From positions 1 to 37,042 of the forward strand of contig JAFZBH010000032.1 of assembly GCA_017561865.1 (NCBI GenBank): 37,042 nucleotides of DNA, in the 5' to 3' direction. The stretch is from Bacteroidales bacterium. Its GTDB lineage: Bacteria; Bacteroidota; Bacteroidia; Bacteroidales; UBA932. The position numbers were made by a program, and so were the translations under genes. How positions within the stretch are numbered: the first letter of the stretch is position 1; every line of letters begins with the position of its first letter. Shown here piece by piece: positions 1 through 37,042 of the stretch. The notes below the pieces were generated by a model. That model was not told where the DNA came from. It made no database searches and worked only from the letters and a program-made list of their open reading frames with translations.

Positions 1-834
1 GGAGAAGGCACCGCCCCCGTGGGCGCCGCGTCCGCCGTAGGTGTCGACGATGATCTTGCGGCCGGTCAGGCCCGTGTCGCCCGCCGGGCCGCCGATCACG
101 AACTTTCCGGTCGGGTTGACGTGCAGGATGAAGGAGCCGTCGAACAGCCTGGCCGTGCGCTCCGGAAGGGAAGCCACGAGGCGGGGGAGGACGATTTCCC
201 GCACGTCCTTCTCGATGCGGGAGCGCATACGCTCGTCGTCGCTGTCGAACTCGTCGTGCTGCGTGCTCAGCACGATGGTGTGGATGCGCACCGGGATGCG
301 GTGGCCCGTGAACTCGACGGTGAACTGGGCCTTGGCGTCCGGGCGCAGGTAAGGCATCAGCTGCGGCTCGCGGTGACGGATGTCGGCGAGGACCTGCAGG
401 AGCTTGTGCGAAAGGGACAGGGCGAGGGGCATATACTCCTCGGTGTCGCGGGATGCGTAGCCGAACATCATTCCCTGGTCGCCGGCGCCCTGCTCGGCGA
501 GCTCCTCGCGGTCGACGCCGCGCCGGATGTCCGCGCTCTGCTCGTGGATGGTGGAAATGACCCCGCACGAAGCGGCATCGAACCCGTATTCGGCCTTGGT
601 GTAGCCGATGCGGGCGATGACGCGGCGCACGGTGGCGGGAATGTCGACGTAGGCGCGGTCGGAACTCACTTCGCCGCCGACGACGACGAGCCCCGCGGTG
701 CAAAAGGTTTCACAGGCGACTTTCGCCTCCGGATCCTGCCGGAGGAATTCGTCGAGAATGGCATCTGAAATCTGGTCGGCGACTTTGTCGGGATGACCTT
801 CGGAGACGGACTCCGATGTAAAGAGGCAGTTCAT
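1..834 (-). CDS. metK: S-adenosylmethionine synthetase, C-terminus cut by window edge
   Basis: Makes S-adenosylmethionine from methionine and ATP in the cytoplasm. The visible 278 codons begin [20 protein letters not shown], the classic N-terminus with the ATP-binding GHPDK motif, followed by [21 protein letters not shown] and, near the window edge, the glycine-rich [12 protein letters not shown] are also diagnostic of MetK. About the last third of the protein (family length near 390-430 residues) lies beyond base 1. The ATG at 834-832 is chosen because it gives the canonical N-terminus and sits directly after a SAM-II-like riboswitch, which would give feedback control by the product. The gene diverges from the TonB-dependent receptor. 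The identification is secure; only the C-terminus is unseen. Confidence 0.97.
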
Positions 835-884
835 CTTTTTTAGCATTTTTGACGAGGTTGCAAGCAGTCAAATCTGTCCTCGTG
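835..884 (-). promoter_or_regulatory. SAM-II-like riboswitch in the metK leader
   Basis: Read on the minus strand, the leader has a 6-bp P1 stem, ACGAGG (883-878) pairing with CCUCGU (857-852). The loop contains AGAUUUGACUG and ends in UUGCAA immediately before the 3' P1 arm. An A-rich tail, UCAAAAAUG then CUAAAAAAG, follows. The order AUUU, UUGCAA, 3' P1 arm, A-rich tail with GCUAAAAA matches the SAM-II (metA-motif) aptamer as I remember it. Loop bases UUUGA (872-868) are complementary to UCAAA (852-848), consistent with the H-type pseudoknot. The metK AUG at 834-832 directly abuts the tail, so ligand binding would hide the initiation region. SAM-II is known from alphaproteobacteria and Bacteroidota. 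Not checked with a covariance model. Confidence 0.85.
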
Positions 885-903
885 GGTTGTTGATAATTCG
901 CGG

Positions 904-10646: not shown

Positions 10647-10738
10647 CGGCGAACGGAGTCTTCCAGACGGGCGGCCGGAAATTATTTTTCGGACAAGTTT
10701 GCCGAAAAACCAATTTCCGCTCCGCTGTCCGTTCGCCG
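10647..10738. repeat. Family A palindromic element, copy A1 (short form, 92 bp)
   Basis: The terminal inverted repeats CGGCGAACGGA / TCCGTTCGCCG are perfect over 11 bp. Nested inside are CGGAAATT/AATTTCCG and TTTTTCGG/CCGAAAAA. The 76-bp core is identical to copy A3 inside manA. It fills the gap between two convergent genes and directly abuts the TAG of the minus-strand gene (10742-10740). Confidence 0.9.
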
Positions 10739-10739
10739 G

Positions 10740-11306: not shown

Positions 11307-11442
11307 CGCCGGCGGGCGGAGTCCTCCGGACGGGGTCCCCGGAAATCTGTGATTTTTGGGGTGTAGAGACGGGCGGCCGGAAATTATTTTTCGGACAGGT
11401 TTGCCGAAAAACCAATTTCCGCTCCGCTGTCCGCCGCCGGCG
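11307..11442. repeat. Family A palindromic element, copy A2 (long form)
   Basis: The left end CGCCGGCGGGCGGA pairs with the right end TCCGCCGCCGGCG apart from one extra G. Relative to the short form it carries a 39-bp module (GGGTCCCC...GTGTAGAGACG) between AGACG-type direct repeats. The remaining core closely matches A1 and A3. It lies in the probable 5' leader of gpmI. Confidence 0.88.
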
Positions 11443-11444
11443 GA

Positions 11445-11532: not shown

Positions 11533-13053
11533 ATGAACCGTAAAGTACTTCTGATGATCCTCGACGGATGGGGCGAGGGCAAACACGATTATTCCAACGC
11601 CATCTGGGCGCAGGGCACGCCGACGATCGACGCCCTGCGTGCGAAATACCCCTATGGCCACCTGCAGGCCTGCGGCGAATACGTCGGCCTGCCCGACGGG
11701 CAGATGGGCAACTCCGAGGTCGGTCATATGAACCTCGGCGCCGGCCGCGTCGTCTACCAGGACCTCGTCAAGATCAATATGGCCGTCCGCGACCACAAGT
11801 TCCTCGACAATGCCGAGATCAAGGCGGTCTATGACTATGTCAAGACCTCCGGCAAGAAGCTCCACCTGATGGGCCTCACCTCCCACGGCGGCGTGCACTC
11901 CTCCCTGGAGCACGTCTATGAGTTCCTCCGCGTGGCAAAAGAATACGGCCTGGAGCAGGTCTATGTGCACGCCTTCATGGACGGCCGCGACACCGACCCG
12001 CGCAGCGGCAAGGGCTTCCTCGAAGAGCTCGAGCAGAAAATGGCAGAGACCACCGGCAAGATAGCTTCCGTGTGCGGCCGCTTCTATGCGATGGACCGCG
12101 ACAAGCGCTGGAACCGTGTCAAGGAGGCCTACGACCTGCTGGTCGAAGGCAAGGGCGCCGCGTTCGAGTCCGCCATCGACGGCATCCAGGCATCCTACGA
12201 TGCCGACGTGACCGACGAGTTCGTCAAGCCGATCGTCATCACGAAGGACGGCAAGCCCCTCGCCAGGATCGAGGAAGGCGACGCCATCATCTTCTACAAC
12301 TTCCGCAACGACCGCGCCCGCGAGCTGACCACCGTGCTCACCCAGAAGGACATGCCGGAAGAGGGGATGAAGACCCTGCCGCTCTACTATTGCTGCCTGA
12401 CTCCCTACGACGCCTCCTTCACCGGCGTGCACATCCTCTTCGACAAGGAGCTGGTGAACGACACCCTGGGCGAGACGGTCTCCAAGGCCGGCAAGCGCCA
12501 GCTGCGCATCGCCGAGACGGAGAAATACGCCCACGTGACCTTCTTCTTCAACGGCGGCCGCGAGCTGCAGTTCGAAGGCGAAGACCGGATCCTGGTGAAC
12601 TCCCCGAAGGTGCCGACCTATGACCTGCTGCCGCAGATGAGCGCCCCCGAGGTGGCCGAGAAGCTGATCGACAAGATCAACTCCGAGGTCGAGGACCTCA
12701 TCATCCTGAACTTCGCCAACGGCGACATGGTGGGCCACACGGGCGTCTACACCGCCGTCACCAAGACGGTCGAGTGCATCGACAAGCTCGTGGGCAAGGT
12801 GGTGGAGGCTGCCATCGCGCACGATTATGTCGTGCTGCTGACCGCCGACCACGGCAACGCCGACTACGAGGTTAATCCCGACGGCACGCCGAACACGGCC
12901 CATTCCCTCAATACGGTCCAGTTCGTGGTGATGAACGCGGGCGAAGAAGTGAAGAGCGTGAAGGACGGCGCGCTGTGCAACGTGGCGCCGACCATCCTCA
13001 AGCTGATGGGCATCCCGCAGCCTGCCGCGATGACCGCGGAGCCGCTCATCTAA
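11533..13053 (+). CDS. gpmI: 2,3-bisphosphoglycerate-independent phosphoglycerate mutase
   Basis: Interconverts 3- and 2-phosphoglycerate in glycolysis and gluconeogenesis, using two metal ions. The 506 residues match the family length. [16 protein letters not shown] gives the N-terminal metal-binding Asp. [16 protein letters not shown] contains the phosphorylated Ser61. [12 protein letters not shown], the RNDRARE motif and [11 protein letters not shown] supply substrate and metal ligands. Only 2 nt separate its stop from manA, so the two sugar-phosphate enzymes are one operon. The likely promoter (11288) is about 230 nt upstream and separated from the gene by two repeats. The ATG at 11533 gives the canonical N-terminus. 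Confidence 0.97.
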
Positions 13054-13055
13054 GG

Positions 13056-13991
13056 ATGTATAAGTTCGAGCCGATCCGCAAGACCCTGGTCTGGGGCACG
13101 GAGAGCTGGGTGCTCTCCGGTGTCCCGGGCTTCGAGTCGGTCGTGGCGGACGGTCCGGAGGCGGGCAGGAAAATCACCGAGTTGTTTCCCGGCGAGTTTC
13201 CGCTGCTCGTCAAGTTCATCGACGCGAAGCGCGACCTCAGCATCCAGGTGCATCCGGACGATGCGCTTGCCCTCAAGCGTCACGGCTGCCGGGGCAAGTC
13301 GGAGATGTGGTATGTGCTGGACGCGGCTCCCGGAGCAAAGCTGATTTCCGGCCTGAAGTCCGCCCTCACCCCGGACGAGTATGTCCGCCTGGTGGCGGAG
13401 GACTGCATCACGGAGGTCCTGGCGGAGCACGAGGTGTCTGCCGGTGACGTCTTTTTCCTGCCCGCCGGCCGCATCCATTCCATCGGGGGCGGATGCTATC
13501 TGGCGGAGGTCCAGCAGACTTCGGACATCACCTATCGCATCTATGATTACAACCGTCCGGGACTGGACGGAAAGCCCCGCCAGCTCCATACGGAACAGGC
13601 GAAGGATGCGATTGATTATCAGGTATATCCGGATTACCGGACGCATTATGAGGCGCGGGTGGACGAGCCCGTGGAACTGGTCCGCTGCCCGCAGTTCACG
13701 GTCGATATGGTGGATTTGACGCCGGCGGCGGAGTCTTCCAGACGGGCGGCCGGAAATTATTTTTCGGACAAGTTTGCCGAAAAACCAATTTCCGCTCCGC
13801 TGTCCGCCGCCGGCGACACGGTGTCGTTCTTAGTACTCATCGGAGTTTCCGGATCGGGCACGGTCCGTTCGCCGCAGGGCGAGACGACCCTGGCGGCGGG
13901 GGAGGCGGTACTGCTGATGGAAGGGGACCTGTCAGGCTTCAGCCTGATCCCCGGCCGGGACGGTCTCAGGCTCCTCTCCGCCCATATCTAA
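13056..13991 (+). CDS. manA: Class I mannose-6-phosphate isomerase with in-frame repeat insertion
   Basis: Interconverts mannose-6-phosphate and fructose-6-phosphate; zinc-dependent cupin, 311 residues. MYKFEPIRKTLVWGTESWVL is the Bacteroidota-type N-terminus. Zinc-site motifs are LSIQVHPDD, MWYVLDAAPGA and FFLPAGRIHSIGGG, with EVQQTSDITYRIYDY as the class signature. The ATG at 13056, 2 nt after the gpmI stop, is chosen over longer frames that overlap gpmI. Residues about 222-253 (containing GNYFSDKFAEKPISAPLS) are encoded entirely by repeat A3, at the linker between the catalytic part and the C-terminal cupin (VSFLVLIGVSGSGTVRSP). The frame is intact on both sides, so the enzyme is probably functional with an added loop. 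The 3' end overlaps the convergent gene at 13932. Confidence 0.93.
   Translation: MYKFEPIRKTLVWGTESWVLSGVPGFESVVADGPEAGRKITELFPGEFPLLVKFIDAKRDLSIQVHPDDALALKRHGCRGKSEMWYVLDAAPGAKLISGLKSALTPDEYVRLVAEDCITEVLAEHEVSAGDVFFLPAGRIHSIGGGCYLAEVQQTSDITYRIYDYNRPGLDGKPRQLHTEQAKDAIDYQVYPDYRTHYEARVDEPVELVRCPQFTVDMVDLTPAAESSRRAAGNYFSDKFAEKPISAPLSAAGDTVSFLVLIGVSGSGTVRSPQGETTLAAGEAVLLMEGDLSGFSLIPGRDGLRLLSAHI
13722..13813. repeat. Family A palindromic element, copy A3 (short form), inside manA
   Basis: The ends CCGGCGGCGGA / TCCGCCGCCGG are perfect inverted repeats. The 76-bp core is identical to A1. It is read in the manA frame without a stop codon and contributes about 31 residues. The end sequence differs from A1 by paired changes in both arms. 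Confidence 0.92.
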
Positions 13992-14875: not shown

Positions 14876-17032
14876 TTATTCTGGGTCTTCAATCAGTTCG
14901 AAATCCAGCAGGCGCTGCTCCAGGTTGGCGTTCTTCACCCGGATGCGTACCGCATCTCCGAGGCGGAACTGCCTGTGGCTGCGCTTGCCGACGAGCCGGT
15001 AGCGCGGCTCGTCGAATTCGAAGAAGTCGGAGCGGATGTCGCGCACCGACACCATTCCCTCGATCTTCGTGGGCTCGATCTCCACGTACATCCCCCACTC
15101 GGTGACGCCGGACACATGGCCGTCGTACTCCTCGCCGATCTTGTCCATCATGAACTCGACGAGTTTGTATTTGACGGAGGTGCGCTCGGCGTCCGCCGCG
15201 ACGAGTTCGCGCTCGGAAGCGTGGCGGCACTCTTCTTCGTATTTCTCCTTCTTGCGGCTCTCCGCGCCGCCCAGGTAGAGCGACAGCAGGCGGTGCACCA
15301 TTAAGTCGGGGTAGCGGCGGATGGGGGAGGTGAAGTGCGTGTAGAACTTGAAGGCGAGGCCGTAGTGGCCGATGTTGTCGGTGCTGTAGCAGGCCTTGGC
15401 CATCGCCCGCAGGGCGAGATTCTCCATCGCGGCGAATTCGGGTCTGCCCTTGGCCGACTCGAGCAGCTGGTTGAGGGCTTTCGCGGTGGCGTGGGCGCGG
15501 GTCTGCGGGTTGTTGGGGATGCGGTGGCCGAAGCCTTTGGCGAAAGTGTAGAGGGCCTCGAGCTTGATCTCGTTGGGCTCGCCGTGGACGCGGTAGACGA
15601 AGGTCTTGGCGTTTTTCTGCGCCACGCCGTTCATCTGTCCGCCGGTGGCGACGAATTCCGCGACGGTGCGGTTCGCCAGCAGCATGAATTCCTCGATCAG
15701 CCAGTTGGCCTCTTTCGAGACTTTCTGGTACACGCGGAGCGGTTTGCCCTTCTCGTCCACCTCGACCTTCATCTCCGGCCGGTCGAAATCGATCGCCCCG
15801 GCGTTCCGCTCGTTCTCCTTCAGGATACTCGCTAATTTATGTAAAGAGATAATAGCCGTTTCCAGTTCTGAATCCGCAGGCGCAGCGGAGGCGGCTGCAG
15901 CCTCGCCAGAACGTGCCACCCTCGGCACCGTAAGAGGGAGGGGCCCATCGTCAGATGGGAGGGGTCCGGCATCGCCGGACGTCTGGAGAGGCTGGCTGCC
16001 GCGGAGCGGAGCCGCGGATTCAATAATCTGCTGAGCCTGGTCGTAATCAAGGCGATAGTCGGAGTTGATGACGGTGCGGCCAATCCAGCGGGATTTGATT
16101 TCGGCCTTGGGCGTCATCTCGAAGACGGCCGAGAAGGTCAGCTTGTCCTCGTGTGGCCGCAGCGAGCACAGCTTGTTGCACAGTTTCTCCGGCAACATCG
16201 GAACCGTGCGGTCCACCAGATAGACCGACGTGCCGCGCTCGCGCGCCTCCTGGTCCACCGGCGAGCCGGGCTTGACATAATACGAGACGTCGGCGATATG
16301 CACGCCGATCTCATAATTCCCGTTCTCGAGCGGCCGGAACGACAGCGCGTCGTCGAAATCCTTCGCGTCGGCGGGGTCGATCGTGAACGTGAACGTGTCG
16401 CGGAAATCCTTGCGGCCCTTCAGGTCCGCGTCCGTGATCTCCTCGGAAATCTTGTCTGCCGCATTCTCCACCTCGGAGGAAAAACGGTAGGGGAGATTGA
16501 ACTCCGCCAGGATGGCGTGCATCTCCGTCTCGTTCTCCCCAGGCATGCCCAGCACGTCGACCACGTGCCCGAAGGGGCCCGGATCGCGGCGGTCCCAGCG
16601 GTCCACGACCGCCGCCACCTTCATCCCGGCCTGCGCGCCCTGGGCCGCGGCCGCCTCGGCATCCACCTGGATGTCGTAAGGCATCGTCTTGCTCTGCATC
16701 AGGACCCAGGCCTGGGCCCCGACGGTATGATAATAACCCACGAACGGCCGGGTCGACCGCTCGAGAATCTCCACCACTTCGCCCTCGCGGCGGCGGACAT
16801 CGCCGCTCTTCTGCCGCGTCACGGCCACCAGCACGGTGTCGCCCTGCAGCGCGTGGCGGGTCTTGTTGGCCTTGACGAAGACATCGTCGTCCTGGCCGTC
16901 GATCATGACGAAGATGAACCCTTCGCGGGTCATCTGCACCTTCCCGACATACTGCGGAAAGGTCTTTCTGCTGCCGGAGCCGGATCTGCTTCTTCCTGAT
17001 GTCTTCCGGCCTTTTCTACTTCTTTTCTGCAT
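14876..17032 (-). CDS. rnr: Ribonuclease R (RNB-family 3'-5' exoribonuclease) with in-frame insertion
   Basis: Processive 3'-5' exoribonuclease that degrades structured RNA in the cytoplasm; 718 residues. The basic start MQKRSRKGRKTSGRSRS leads to cold-shock/OB domains (YVGKVQMTREGFIFVMID, GEVVEILERS). The RNB catalytic core follows with DPADAKDFDDALSF (acidic metal cluster), DRTVPMLPEKLCNKLCSL and IEEFMLLANRTVAEFVA. YTHFTSPIRRYPDLMVHRLL and a C-terminal S1 domain (YDGHVSGVTEWGMYVEI) complete it. Between QAQQIIES and LETAIISLHKLASIL the family normally has a short linker. Here about 50 residues (about 338-388) rich in Ala, Pro and Ser are encoded by a palindrome-ended insert. The frame is uninterrupted. 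First gene of a four-gene operon, divergent from apt. Confidence 0.95.
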   Translation of the reverse strand: MQKRSRKGRKTSGRSRSGSGSRKTFPQYVGKVQMTREGFIFVMIDGQDDDVFVKANKTRHALQGDTVLVAVTRQKSGDVRRREGEVVEILERSTRPFVGYYHTVGAQAWVLMQSKTMPYDIQVDAEAAAAQGAQAGMKVAAVVDRWDRRDPGPFGHVVDVLGMPGENETEMHAILAEFNLPYRFSSEVENAADKISEEITDADLKGRKDFRDTFTFTIDPADAKDFDDALSFRPLENGNYEIGVHIADVSYYVKPGSPVDQEARERGTSVYLVDRTVPMLPEKLCNKLCSLRPHEDKLTFSAVFEMTPKAEIKSRWIGRTVINSDYRLDYDQAQQIIESAAPLRGSQPLQTSGDAGPLPSDDGPLPLTVPRVARSGEAAAASAAPADSELETAIISLHKLASILKENERNAGAIDFDRPEMKVEVDEKGKPLRVYQKVSKEANWLIEEFMLLANRTVAEFVATGGQMNGVAQKNAKTFVYRVHGEPNEIKLEALYTFAKGFGHRIPNNPQTRAHATAKALNQLLESAKGRPEFAAMENLALRAMAKACYSTDNIGHYGLAFKFYTHFTSPIRRYPDLMVHRLLSLYLGGAESRKKEKYEEECRHASERELVAADAERTSVKYKLVEFMMDKIGEEYDGHVSGVTEWGMYVEIEPTKIEGMVSVRDIRSDFFEFDEPRYRLVGKRSHRQFRLGDAVRIRVKNANLEQRLLDFELIEDPE
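15870..16021. repeat. 152-bp palindrome-ended element inside rnr
   Basis: The ends GAATCCGC (15870-15877) and GCGGATTC (16014-16021) are inverted repeats with weaker extension inward. Internal hairpins include CCCATC/GATGGG (about 15942-15959) and TCCGGC/GCCGGA (15965-15979). GC-rich and proline/alanine-coding, it is translated through in the rnr frame. No second copy was found in this window. Confidence 0.7.
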
Positions 17033-19752: not shown

Positions 19753-19771
19753 TTCCGGGCTAGATCCGGAA
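19753..19771. repeat. Short REP-like palindrome after the purine permease
   Basis: TTCCGG and CCGGAA are inverted repeats around a 7-nt loop, 12 bp after the permease stop. It resembles the ATTCCCGG-type palindrome inside metH. It may also act as a transcript-end hairpin; no T-tract follows. Confidence 0.4.
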
Positions 19772-19864
19772 AGGATAACCCTGGACTCGATTCCGCACTT
19801 TTTCGATGCGACCCCCGGCTGCCCAGCCAGGGGTCGCACCGATTTTAGCCCTTTTCGGTGCCAC
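19770..19864 (+). repeat. Family B repeat, copy B1 (left of RAYT)
   Basis: 95 bp, 89 of 95 positions identical to B2 and in the same orientation. It contains an imperfect hairpin, GCGACCCC...GGGGTCGC (19809-19837), within a larger palindrome bounded by TTTTTCGATGCGA and TCGCACCGATTTT. It ends CTTTTCGGTGCCAC. Confidence 0.92.
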
Positions 19865-19956: not shown

Positions 19957-20850
19957 ATGGAAAAGCCTCATTATTATCACTACGCCACCGAAGGGTTGAA
20001 GGAGGACACCCTCTTTGCATCTGCTGTTGAATTCATCGCCGGAATCAACCGGATAGCCGTCTGTCTTTGCCGTCTTGGCCCGGATCATCCCGTACAGGTG
20101 ATTTGCTTTTGCTTGATGGACAATCATCTGCACTTTATCCTGTATGGCACGGAGGAAGACTGCGACCTCTTTATCGAGAGCTACAAACAGACAACCGAAC
20201 TTTGGCTCAGACATCACGGAGAGGTGAATGGTCCGGGAAAAAGCTGGCGGATTGGTCACTGGCCAATCCGGGACAGGGAGCGTTTACGTACCACTATCGC
20301 CTATATCCACCGAAATCCGACAGCAGCCGGAATGGCCGTTTCTCCTGCAGGATACCGGTGGAGTTCCGCTTCCCTGGTCTTTACGGATTCTTCCTGGGTC
20401 CGGCTCTATGGGAAGCCGGTGGACAGCATTTCGCTGAATGCCCGGAAGCGGTTGTTCAGCAGTAAGGTGCAAGTTCCGGGAGAATGGATCTTGCTTCCGG
20501 ACGGACTGATATGGCCCGGAGAATTCGTTAATTACAGGCTGATGGAACGGCAGTTTGATTCTGTGCAAGACTATCAGTTCTGTCTGAATAAGCGGGTTGA
20601 AGAAGATATCAATTTGGAGATGAGGCGTTCAGCCATCTCTTTGCCGGATGGGGAGATTTCTGCCCGGGCTCGGCAAATGGCGGAGAAGTTGTTCGGCGAA
20701 CGGGATATGCTCCGGCTGAACGCACAGCAACGGCTCTATTTGGCGCGGCTGCTGAAAAAAGAAACAGGGACTTCCGTTAAACAGATTGCCCGGGTCGTCC
20801 GGATGAAGTTGACGGAGATAGAACCCATCCTGAATCCCCGCAAAGGATAA
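19957..20850 (+). CDS. REP-associated tyrosine transposase (RAYT, Y1/HUH family)
   Basis: 297-residue single-strand DNA transposase of the IS200/IS605-like Y1 superfamily. The HUH motif is MDNHLHFILYG (His57, His59), and the catalytic tyrosine is Tyr116 in TIAYIHRNPTAAGM; this pairing is diagnostic of RAYTs. The C-terminal half ends in a helix-turn-helix-like stretch (LYLARLLKKETGTSVKQIAR, then VVRMKLTEIE), as in longer Bacteroidota RAYTs. It is visibly less GC-rich than its neighbours, suggesting acquisition. No upstream partner gene is seen. It lies between 95-bp direct repeats B1 and B2, and its TAA stop is inside B2. Both catalytic motifs and the frame are intact, so it may be active. RAYTs mobilise short palindromic REPs in other bacteria. 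Confidence 0.93.
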   Translation: MEKPHYYHYATEGLKEDTLFASAVEFIAGINRIAVCLCRLGPDHPVQVICFCLMDNHLHFILYGTEEDCDLFIESYKQTTELWLRHHGEVNGPGKSWRIGHWPIRDRERLRTTIAYIHRNPTAAGMAVSPAGYRWSSASLVFTDSSWVRLYGKPVDSISLNARKRLFSSKVQVPGEWILLPDGLIWPGEFVNYRLMERQFDSVQDYQFCLNKRVEEDINLEMRRSAISLPDGEISARARQMAEKLFGERDMLRLNAQQRLYLARLLKKETGTSVKQIARVVRMKLTEIEPILNPRKG

Positions 20851-20936
20851 CCCCGGACTCGTTTCCGCCCTTTTTCGATGCGACTCCCGGCTGTCCAGCC
20901 AGGGGTCGCACCGATTTTGGCCCTTTTCGGTGCCAC
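20842..20936 (+). repeat. Family B repeat, copy B2 (right of RAYT)
   Basis: 95 bp, differing from B1 at six positions. It begins AAAGGATAACC, so the RAYT stop codon (20848-20850) lies inside it. It is followed directly by family A copy A4. Confidence 0.92.
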
Positions 20937-20937
20937 C

Positions 20938-21068
20938 CGGCGAACGGAGTCTTCCAGACGTGGTCCCCGAAAAACTAAGTTTTTTTGGGTGCAGAGACGG
21001 GCGGCCGGAAATTATTTTTCGGACAGGTTTGCCGAAAAACCAATTTCCGCTCCGCTGTCCGTTCGCCG
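20938..21068. repeat. Family A palindromic element, copy A4 (long form, 131 bp)
   Basis: The ends CGGCGAACGGA / TCCGTTCGCCG are perfect inverted repeats. Compared with A1 it has exactly 39 extra bp (TGGTCCCC...GCAGAGACG) between AGACG repeats; the module can form its own hairpin (AAAAACT / AGTTTTT). The right end abuts the TAG stop of rdgB on the minus strand. Confidence 0.92.
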
Positions 21069-21069
21069 G

Positions 21070-24972: not shown

Positions 24973-25074
24973 TGTCCGTTCGCCGGGTGGCACCGAAAAG
25001 GGCTGAAATCGATGCGACCCCTGGCTGGACAGCCGGGGGTCGCATCGAAAAACGCCAAAAACAGGCCCGGGATC
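24973..25074 (-). repeat. Family B repeat, copy B3, joined to a remnant of family A
   Basis: On the minus strand, bases from about 25074 to 24987 match B1/B2 (TTTTTCGATGCGACC, GGCTGTCCAGCCAGG, CCCTTTTCGGTGCCAC), with divergence at the 5' end. The match is followed by CCGGCGAACGGACA (24986-24973), the end of a family A element with the rest missing. It lies between convergent genes. Its outer edge coincides with the TGA stop of the minus-strand gene. Confidence 0.85.

Positions 25075-33822: not shown

Positions 33823-37042
<3,220 letters not shown>

What the first reader, a model, noticed from the sequence alone, without database searches (positions are those of the whole stretch)
13722..13813. 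Palindromic repeat A3 inserted in frame into mannose-6-phosphate isomerase
A 92-bp element whose 76-bp core is identical to an intergenic copy 3 kb away is translated as about 31 residues inside ManA. It lies at the linker before the C-terminal cupin domain, with catalytic motifs and frame intact. The element has no stop in this frame, and the long-form module is also a multiple of three (39 bp). This parallels the Rickettsia palindromic elements that add peptides to proteins, but in a Bacteroidota housekeeping enzyme.
Basis: partly seen in the sequence, partly recalled or inferred. Interest (0 to 1): 0.82.

Follow-up and report, generated by a model that had tools for sequence, protein, structure and literature searches.

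The report
Hairpin repeats rewriting enzyme loops
In a group of related Bacteroidales bacteria, one of them from yak rumen, short repeated hairpin sequences sit inside the genes of everyday enzymes and read as extra loop residues, with different species carrying different hairpins at the same spot.

Summary
The ManA insert (13720-13815 with its arms, 96 nt, no stop) is a copy of a repeat with 33 matches in this incomplete genome. Eight host ORFs there carry it in frame, in three sense and two antisense frames; the sixth frame holds a stop. Hosts include ManA, AtpG, IspG, DapF and RimO.

Sister species carry other palindromes at the same spots of these five enzymes: the same family in another frame, other families in either orientation, fragments and mosaics, or nothing. 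26 of 30 linkers of 20 aa or more share DNA with a linker of an unrelated gene; the other 58,008 nt of these genes gave no cross-gene hit. Two species with 89-94% flank identity differ in three of four linkers.

Best reading: non-autonomous hairpin elements insert widely and survive where a loop tolerates any open frame. Known parallels: Rickettsia palindromic elements and intragenic REPs. New here: several families, frames and orientations turning over at shared sites. The mobiliser is unknown. Expression, structure and activity are untested.

The parts
13056..13991 (+). manA, class I mannose-6-phosphate isomerase-like, 311 aa, host of the insert
13720..13815 (+). family A short-form palindromic element with its arms, 96 nt, read in frame
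13720..13731 (+). 5' arm CGCCGGCGGCGG
   Evidence: arms differ between copies but stay largely complementary
13804..13815 (+). 3' arm CCGCCGCCGGCG, complementary to the 5' arm
10647..10739 (+). family A short-form intergenic copy
11307..11443 (+). family A long-form intergenic copy upstream of the ORF 11533-13053 (phosphoglycerate mutase by recall)
20937..21069 (+). family A long-form copy next to the RAYT-like gene
15869..16015 (-). in-frame extra segment of RNase R that folds as nested hairpins; a further candidate palindromic insert (family not assigned, relatives not compared)
   Evidence: the Pfam RNB match spans 381 residues for 324 profile positions
34635..34661 (-). in-frame small palindrome CGTCATTCCCGGCTCGACCGGGAATCT in metH, similar by reading to families C/H (relatives not compared)
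19957..20850 (+). RAYT-like transposase gene; candidate mobiliser of its own flanking palindromes, not shown for family A
   Evidence: NF047646 43 bits, below its cut-off of 80

Best explanation
The ManA insert is a copy of a non-autonomous hairpin element (family A, about 95 nt short form or about 135 nt long form). Shown: it is multi-copy; in host ORFs it lies in frame in whichever of five open frames it happens to fall; unrelated hairpin families occupy the same sites of the same enzymes in sister species. Inferred: the elements are mobile and insert at many places; insertions survive inside genes only where a surface loop or interdomain linker tolerates 15-50 arbitrary residues and the frame stays open; such loops are hit again and again, and inserts turn over by new insertion, nesting and deletion between repeats. 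The encoded peptide is probably neutral or slightly costly, not selected for its sequence. The enzyme that moves family A is not identified.
For: 33 matches in the genome. Family A in frame in ORFs of ManA, AtpG, IspG, RimO, DapF, an MBOAT protein, a U32-family protein and, weakest, an OMP-like protein. PDB alignments place the AtpG and RimO inserts at short junctions: query 70 to 96 for 65 to 68 of 5dn6, and 378 to 427 for 378 to 384 of 4jc0. Frames: sense phases 0, 1, 2 and antisense phases 1, 2; the sixth frame has a stop. The ManA loop holds family A in two frames (G000, G124), A fragments joined to family C (G275, G221), family F2 in both orientations (G216 and G338 against G380), a C-like palindrome by reading (G166, G113), family H (G096), or a plain short loop (G022, G297). 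32 of 53 linkers, and 26 of 30 of at least 20 aa, share DNA with a linker of another gene; 61 cross-gene pairs, 17 with an opposite-orientation hit, of which AtpG-ManA of G000 reflects only the palindrome's own symmetry. No cross-gene hit in 58,008 nt of the same genes outside the linkers; fold z < -3 in 16 of 43 linkers against 23 of 832 control windows. Insert families are scattered over the tree.
Against: No transcript, peptide or activity data; the genomes are drafts, the named ones metagenome-assembled. No target-site duplication was seen by eye, and no pre-insertion allele of the same species is available, so mobility rests on copy number and on presence or absence between species. 27 of 43 linkers do not fold strongly, and 21 of 53 have no cross-gene hit, many of them plain short loops. 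Host genes were found through ORFs that span the element, so frame-breaking insertions could have been missed: one search put 24 of 30 copies outside called ORFs, misplacing AtpG and probably the OMP-like gene, and does not exclude a broken gene. By coding score on both sides only 5 (strict) or 7 (relaxed) of 30 copies count as inside genes. Stops occur in some relatives' matches and were not resolved: AtpG of G124, DapF of G216 and G338.
Confidence: 0.82

Rival explanations
1. [quoted passage not shown]
For: G216 and G338 share an identical ManA insert, and G124 and G275 share 34 identical nt in theirs. Fragments and mosaics in G221, G275 and G113 show decay of older inserts.
Against: The F2 insert of ManA in G380 is in the opposite orientation to G216 and G338, and the F1 insert of IspG in G124 is opposite to G096 and G216. 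The ManA element of G124 is closer to the RimO element of G000 (93.6% over 78 nt) than to the ManA element of G000 (88.5% over 96 nt). G216 and G338, with 89-94% flank identity, carry different families in AtpG and IspG, and only one of them has an insert in RimO.
Confidence: 0.1
2. The hairpin acts in the mRNA: at domain or loop junctions it slows the ribosome or changes mRNA decay, and the peptide is only tolerated. Any family, frame or orientation would then serve, because a palindrome folds either way.
For: What is shared between sites is the hairpin and not the peptide. By reading, family A subtypes keep pairing through paired changes.
Against: Pairing is also expected of any mobile palindrome copied from a master. 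Several species have no insert at a given site and an open gene. 27 of 43 linkers lack strong folding.
Confidence: 0.06
3. The added peptide has a selected function (binding, assembly, stability).
For: Inserts of 15 aa or more over the shortest form are found in housekeeping enzymes of most of the ten inner-clade species.
Against: The same element gives five unrelated peptides in different hosts; neighbours have unrelated peptides or none at the same spot.
Confidence: 0.04
4. Assembly error or decaying gene: the repeat was stitched into manA by the assembler, or manA is a pseudogene.
For: The genome is a draft of 56% completeness in 89 contigs; repeats attract assembly errors; a distant ManA-like match exists elsewhere.
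Against: In-frame inserts at the same sites recur in other assemblies, and the barrel downstream aligns to the end of the protein. A chimera would rarely keep the frame in so many genes.
Confidence: 0.04

Closest known systems
Rickettsia palindromic elements (RPE) and Wolbachia palindromic elements
   Same: Palindromic repeats of about 100-150 bp, in frame in unrelated conserved protein genes, often in exposed places; some Rickettsia orthologues carry different RPE groups near each other (PMC3767692, PMC10969869, PMC2229807: passages read). [quoted passage not shown] families C and H here carry the same letters as part of GAATGACG, which is a lead and was not tested.
   Different: Here Bacteroidota from metagenomes; family A is read in five frames and both orientations; several unrelated families replace each other at the same sites between species of about 90% identity. 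PMC3767692 left hotspots and one common origin both possible; here orientation and family differences favour repeated insertion.
Intragenic GTAG/CGTC REPs (Opitutus, Thauera, Xanthomonas and others)
   Same: Palindromes inside coding regions, suggested to be neutral in flexible linkers; different REPs at about the same site of recB in two Xanthomonas species; CGTC repeats reported from Bacteroidetes among other phyla (PMC3733652, section 15 and passages). Families C and H begin with CGTC by reading and may belong here.
   Different: Family A has no GTAG and is larger; the parallel hits here involve five enzymes compared over up to twelve genomes, with at least five families.
MITEs with in-frame ORFs (ERIC, Correia 107 bp)
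   Same: Non-autonomous repeats of about 100 bp with terminal inverted repeats, sometimes fused in frame (PMC2229807, passages).
   Different: No target-site duplication or terminal TA seen for family A by eye; arms vary between copies.
REPIN/RAYT systems
   Same: A RAYT-like gene with palindromic repeats lies in the window.
   Different: Its immediate flanks are another repeat (D2); a clear family A copy adjoins the RAYT in 1 of 30 RAYT loci.

Membership tests
Protein-coding palindromic elements (RPE-like, as a functional kind) | Multi-copy palindromic repeat | tested here: met
   33 matches, strong hairpin
Protein-coding palindromic elements (RPE-like, as a functional kind) | Inserted in frame in conserved protein genes | tested here: met
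Protein-coding palindromic elements (RPE-like, as a functional kind) | Host proteins translated and active | not testable with these tools
   no expression or activity data
Rickettsia RPE family proper | Each element encodes a conserved peptide | tested here: not met
   family A is read in five frames; the RPE feature is from PMC10969869, passage
Rickettsia RPE family proper | Sequence relationship to known RPEs | not tested
   RPE sequences were not fetched; the ATGAC letters in families C and H are only a lead
GTAG/CGTC REPs moved by RAYTs (for family A) | GTAG tag at one end | tested here: not met
   no GTAG on either strand of 13720-13815
GTAG/CGTC REPs moved by RAYTs (for family A) | CGTC tag at one end | tested here: inconclusive
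   CGTC occurs inside the element on the other strand, not at its end, by reading
GTAG/CGTC REPs moved by RAYTs (for family A) | Repeats flank the RAYT gene | tested here: not met
   clear copy within 1.5 kb of the RAYT in 1 of 30 loci, weak partial matches in two more; but co-occurrence by genome is strong, 9 of 11 against 18 of 389, and confounded by kinship
CGTC REPs (for families C and H) | CGTC tag at one end of a 20-40 bp palindrome | tested here: inconclusive
   copies begin CGTCATTCC or CGTCATTCG by reading; not compared with the published family models
MITE (for family A) | Terminal inverted repeats | tested here: met
   arms complementary
MITE (for family A) | Target-site duplication | tested here: inconclusive
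   none evident by eye in the flanks; no exact empty site of the same species

The most novel reading that the evidence does not exclude
In this clade hairpin elements work as interchangeable, expressed loop cassettes. Several unrelated palindrome families are continually swapped in and out of the same junctions of core enzymes (ManA, AtpG, IspG, DapF, RimO, and also an MBOAT protein, an ABC-F-like protein and a Mur ligase). What is kept at a site is a folded mRNA hairpin at a domain or loop boundary, which paces translation or mRNA decay, while the peptide is free to be anything.
Probability: 0.07. Interest if true: 0.92.

Novelty: new variant of a known kind. Interest (0 to 1): 0.74.

Why it matters
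Protein-coding palindromes are best described in obligate intracellular Rickettsia and Wolbachia, and PMC3767692 left open whether shared sites mean hotspots or one old insertion. Here closely related species carry different families, frames and orientations at the same sites, which makes that question answerable and favours hotspots set by loop tolerance. It offers a natural insertion-scanning experiment on core enzymes, a warning for annotation (unrelated proteins share DNA-derived segments), and a possible source of new protein segments outside intracellular bacteria.

Tried and rejected
RAYT as the mobiliser of family A: not shown, not excluded. Against: the window's RAYT is flanked by direct copies of another palindrome, D2, and a clear family A copy was near the RAYT in 1 of 30 RAYT loci, with weak partial matches in two more. 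For: of the genomes whose best RAYT match is at least 60% identical (11), 9 have a family A match with E up to 1e-10, against 18 of the other 389 (counts read by hand from the two lists, assuming the same 400 genomes; Fisher p 4e-10). These are close kin, so kinship may explain it; both lists score only a few candidates per genome, and 18 genomes have family A without such a RAYT.

Elements evolved to be stop-free: not supported. Twelve intergenic short A copies, which are not independent, have 4.8 open frames on average against 3.7 expected, single-copy p 0.12-0.38; seven long copies 2.9 against 2.3; F1, F2, G and D2 are near expectation and C and H below it.

Fixed peptide function: argued against by the five frames. 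Phage or plasmid carriage: no exact hit of a 28-base pattern in viral contigs, no hit in plasmids; the phage records were not searched. Known RNA family: Rfam at gathering thresholds gave one match in the window, not at the element.

Surface-loop test by structure prediction: not possible, the tool was off.

Coding-score test: family A 5 of 30 (strict) and 7 of 30 (relaxed), F1 16 of 28 and 17 of 28; the OMP-like host passes neither.

Rows dropped: AtpG of G380, DapF of G216, RimO of G096 and RimO of G380, where the boundaries were not found (truncated contig, wrong ORF or pattern miss); RimO of G096 shows a short insert. One search failed (script error) and was rerun.

Full report
Observation. 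manA (13056-13991, +) codes for 311 aa. Inside it lies a 96-nt palindrome, 13720-13815, with 12-nt arms CGCCGGCGGCGG and CCGCCGCCGGCG, without a stop in the manA frame. It is a short-form copy of a repeat (family A): the 66-nt core has 33 matches in the window's genome (1.58 Mb, 89 contigs, completeness 56%), five of them identical over all 66 nt, and 78 nt are identical to the intergenic copy at 10654-10731. Three further copies lie in the window (10647-10739 short, 11307-11443 and 20937-21069 long). Arms differ between copies but remain largely complementary, for example GCTGACCGACGG with CCGTCGGTCAGC in L010.

The host protein. ManA is recognised by PF20511, TIGR00218 (77 bits, below its cut-off of 116) and PDB 1qwr (5e-31). 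A profile of 88 ManA sequences aligned to 1qwr puts the site between the first two strands of the C-terminal barrel; no structure could be computed. In 29 of 29 first-round relatives read (L035-L063) the segment is absent. The linker is 37 aa here, 14 in G022 and 12 in G297, a net gain of 23-25 residues.

Other hosts in the same genome. Reading the flanks of 30 of the 33 copies (L001-L030), I found spanning ORFs of recognisable proteins in eight: ManA, AtpG, IspG, RimO, DapF, an MBOAT protein, a U32-family protein and an OMP-like protein. One of the three remaining copies lies in the same OMP-like ORF. The OMP-like case is the weakest (only a barrel domain downstream). The element is read in sense phases 0 (ManA, AtpG, OMP-like), 1 (RimO) and 2 (IspG) and antisense phases 1 (MBOAT) and 2 (DapF, U32). 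The sixth frame carries a stop and was not seen in use. So the shared feature is the DNA palindrome, not a peptide. PDB alignments show the AtpG and RimO inserts where relatives have 2 and 5 residues; for IspG and DapF the alignments break at the insert. A coding-score test on both sides passed 5 of 30 copies with strict and 7 of 30 with relaxed limits. A simple gene caller placed 24 of 30 copies outside called ORFs, wrongly for AtpG and probably for the OMP-like gene.

Sister species. In a sample of 400 genomes of the genus, ManA matches with E up to 1e-80 occurred in 126. Loci were held for the best 30 (window included); I read their linkers together with L094-L097. G022 and G297 have the short loop.

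The same holds for AtpG, IspG, DapF and RimO, searched in 11 sister genomes with matches in 9, 11, 9 and 11 of them (four rows dropped, see Tried and rejected). Of 53 linkers, 32 share DNA (E up to 1e-3) with a linker of a different gene; of the 30 with at least 20 aa, 26 do. There are 61 cross-gene pairs, 17 with an opposite-orientation hit, of which one (AtpG-ManA of G000) only reflects the palindrome's symmetry. The remaining 58,008 nt of the same genes give no cross-gene hit, and strong folding (z < -3 against codon shuffles) occurs in 16 of 43 linkers against 23 of 832 control windows. So 27 of 43 linkers are not strong hairpins: several are fragments, short or plain loops.

Turnover. G216 and G338 have 89-94% nucleotide identity in the flanks, yet AtpG carries F1 in one and F2 in the other, IspG F1 and C, RimO none and H; ManA has the same insert in both; DapF could not be compared. 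G113 and G166 (91-97%) differ in AtpG and DapF but are the same or nearly so in ManA, IspG and RimO. On a tree of the five proteins without linkers (two nodes below 70% support, G096 and G380 with much missing data) insert families are scattered. F1 has 28 matches in 8 of 12 genomes and none in the window's; by coding score 17 of 28 copies (relaxed limits) or 16 (strict) lie in genes in frame, in IspG, AtpG, a Mur ligase, an ABC-F-like protein with two ABC domains, an MBOAT protein and GSCFA proteins. In the MBOAT protein F1 sits in the same loop as family A in the window's genome, both antisense. The ABC-F-like linker carries different element mixtures in five species, by reading.

Mechanism. 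Shown: copy number, in-frame position, many frames and orientations, different families at the same sites. Inferred: mobility, and a filter by loop tolerance. Open frames are not clearly commoner than in dinucleotide shuffles, so there is no sign that the elements are adapted for coding. The mobiliser is unknown. The window's RAYT is flanked by another repeat (D2) and a clear family A copy adjoins it in 1 of 30 RAYT loci; yet genomes with a RAYT at least 60% identical have strong family A matches in 9 of 11 cases against 18 of 389 others (counted), an association that kinship may explain. Loss of the segment at RNA level cannot be excluded without expression data; conservation of the frame argues against it, with the caveat that hosts were found through spanning ORFs.

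Known relatives. In-frame palindromes are known from Rickettsia and Wolbachia (PMC3767692, PMC10969869, PMC2229807: passages read) and from GTAG/CGTC REPs in several phyla, with CGTC repeats also in Bacteroidetes, and with different REPs at about the same recB site in two Xanthomonas species (PMC3733652, section 15 and passages). [quoted passage not shown] this lead was not tested. PMC2229807 reports that an RPE-bearing guanylate kinase is translated and active with changed substrate affinity (passage). PMC3767692 left hotspot and common origin both possible. My literature searches (listings, apart from the passages named and one from PMC12306157) showed no report of in-frame inserts of this kind in Bacteroidota; the library holds open-licence papers only, so this is no proof of absence. 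That the genus may be Cryptobacteroides is recalled, not a tool result.

Verdict. A real feature: a new variant of a known kind, spread over a clade and unusually dynamic.

Noticed in passing
window 19766-19864, 20838-20936 and (inverted) 24975-25071: A second palindromic repeat (D2) flanks the RAYT-like gene as direct copies and recurs inverted 4 kb away; probably the RAYT's own repeat.
   Followed up: partly
window 34635-34661 (-): Small palindrome CGTCATTCCCGGCTCGACCGGGAATCT in frame inside metH.
   Followed up: partly
window 15869-16015 (-): RNase R carries an extra in-frame segment of about 49 residues that folds as nested hairpins.
   Followed up: partly
window 830-887 (-): SAM-II riboswitch (RF01726, 60.9 bits, gathering 44).
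   Followed up: no
L277 (G000:C10), L287, L291, L300, L305: ABC-F-like proteins have a long linker before the C-terminal coiled coil that seems built from several palindrome families, a different mixture in each species.
   Followed up: partly
L242-L243 (G124:C31): AtpG of G124 has a stop inside and a break between residues 221 and 238 of the query; error or a further insertion.
   Followed up: no
G000 C6, C26, C37, C49 (L029-L032, L278-L280, L282): The 3' half of family A directly abuts family G in four places, suggesting composite elements.
   Followed up: no
genus sample of 400 genomes: RAYT-like genes (E up to 1e-10) occur in 329 of 400 genomes, often several per genome.
   Followed up: no
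[quoted passage not shown]
   Followed up: no
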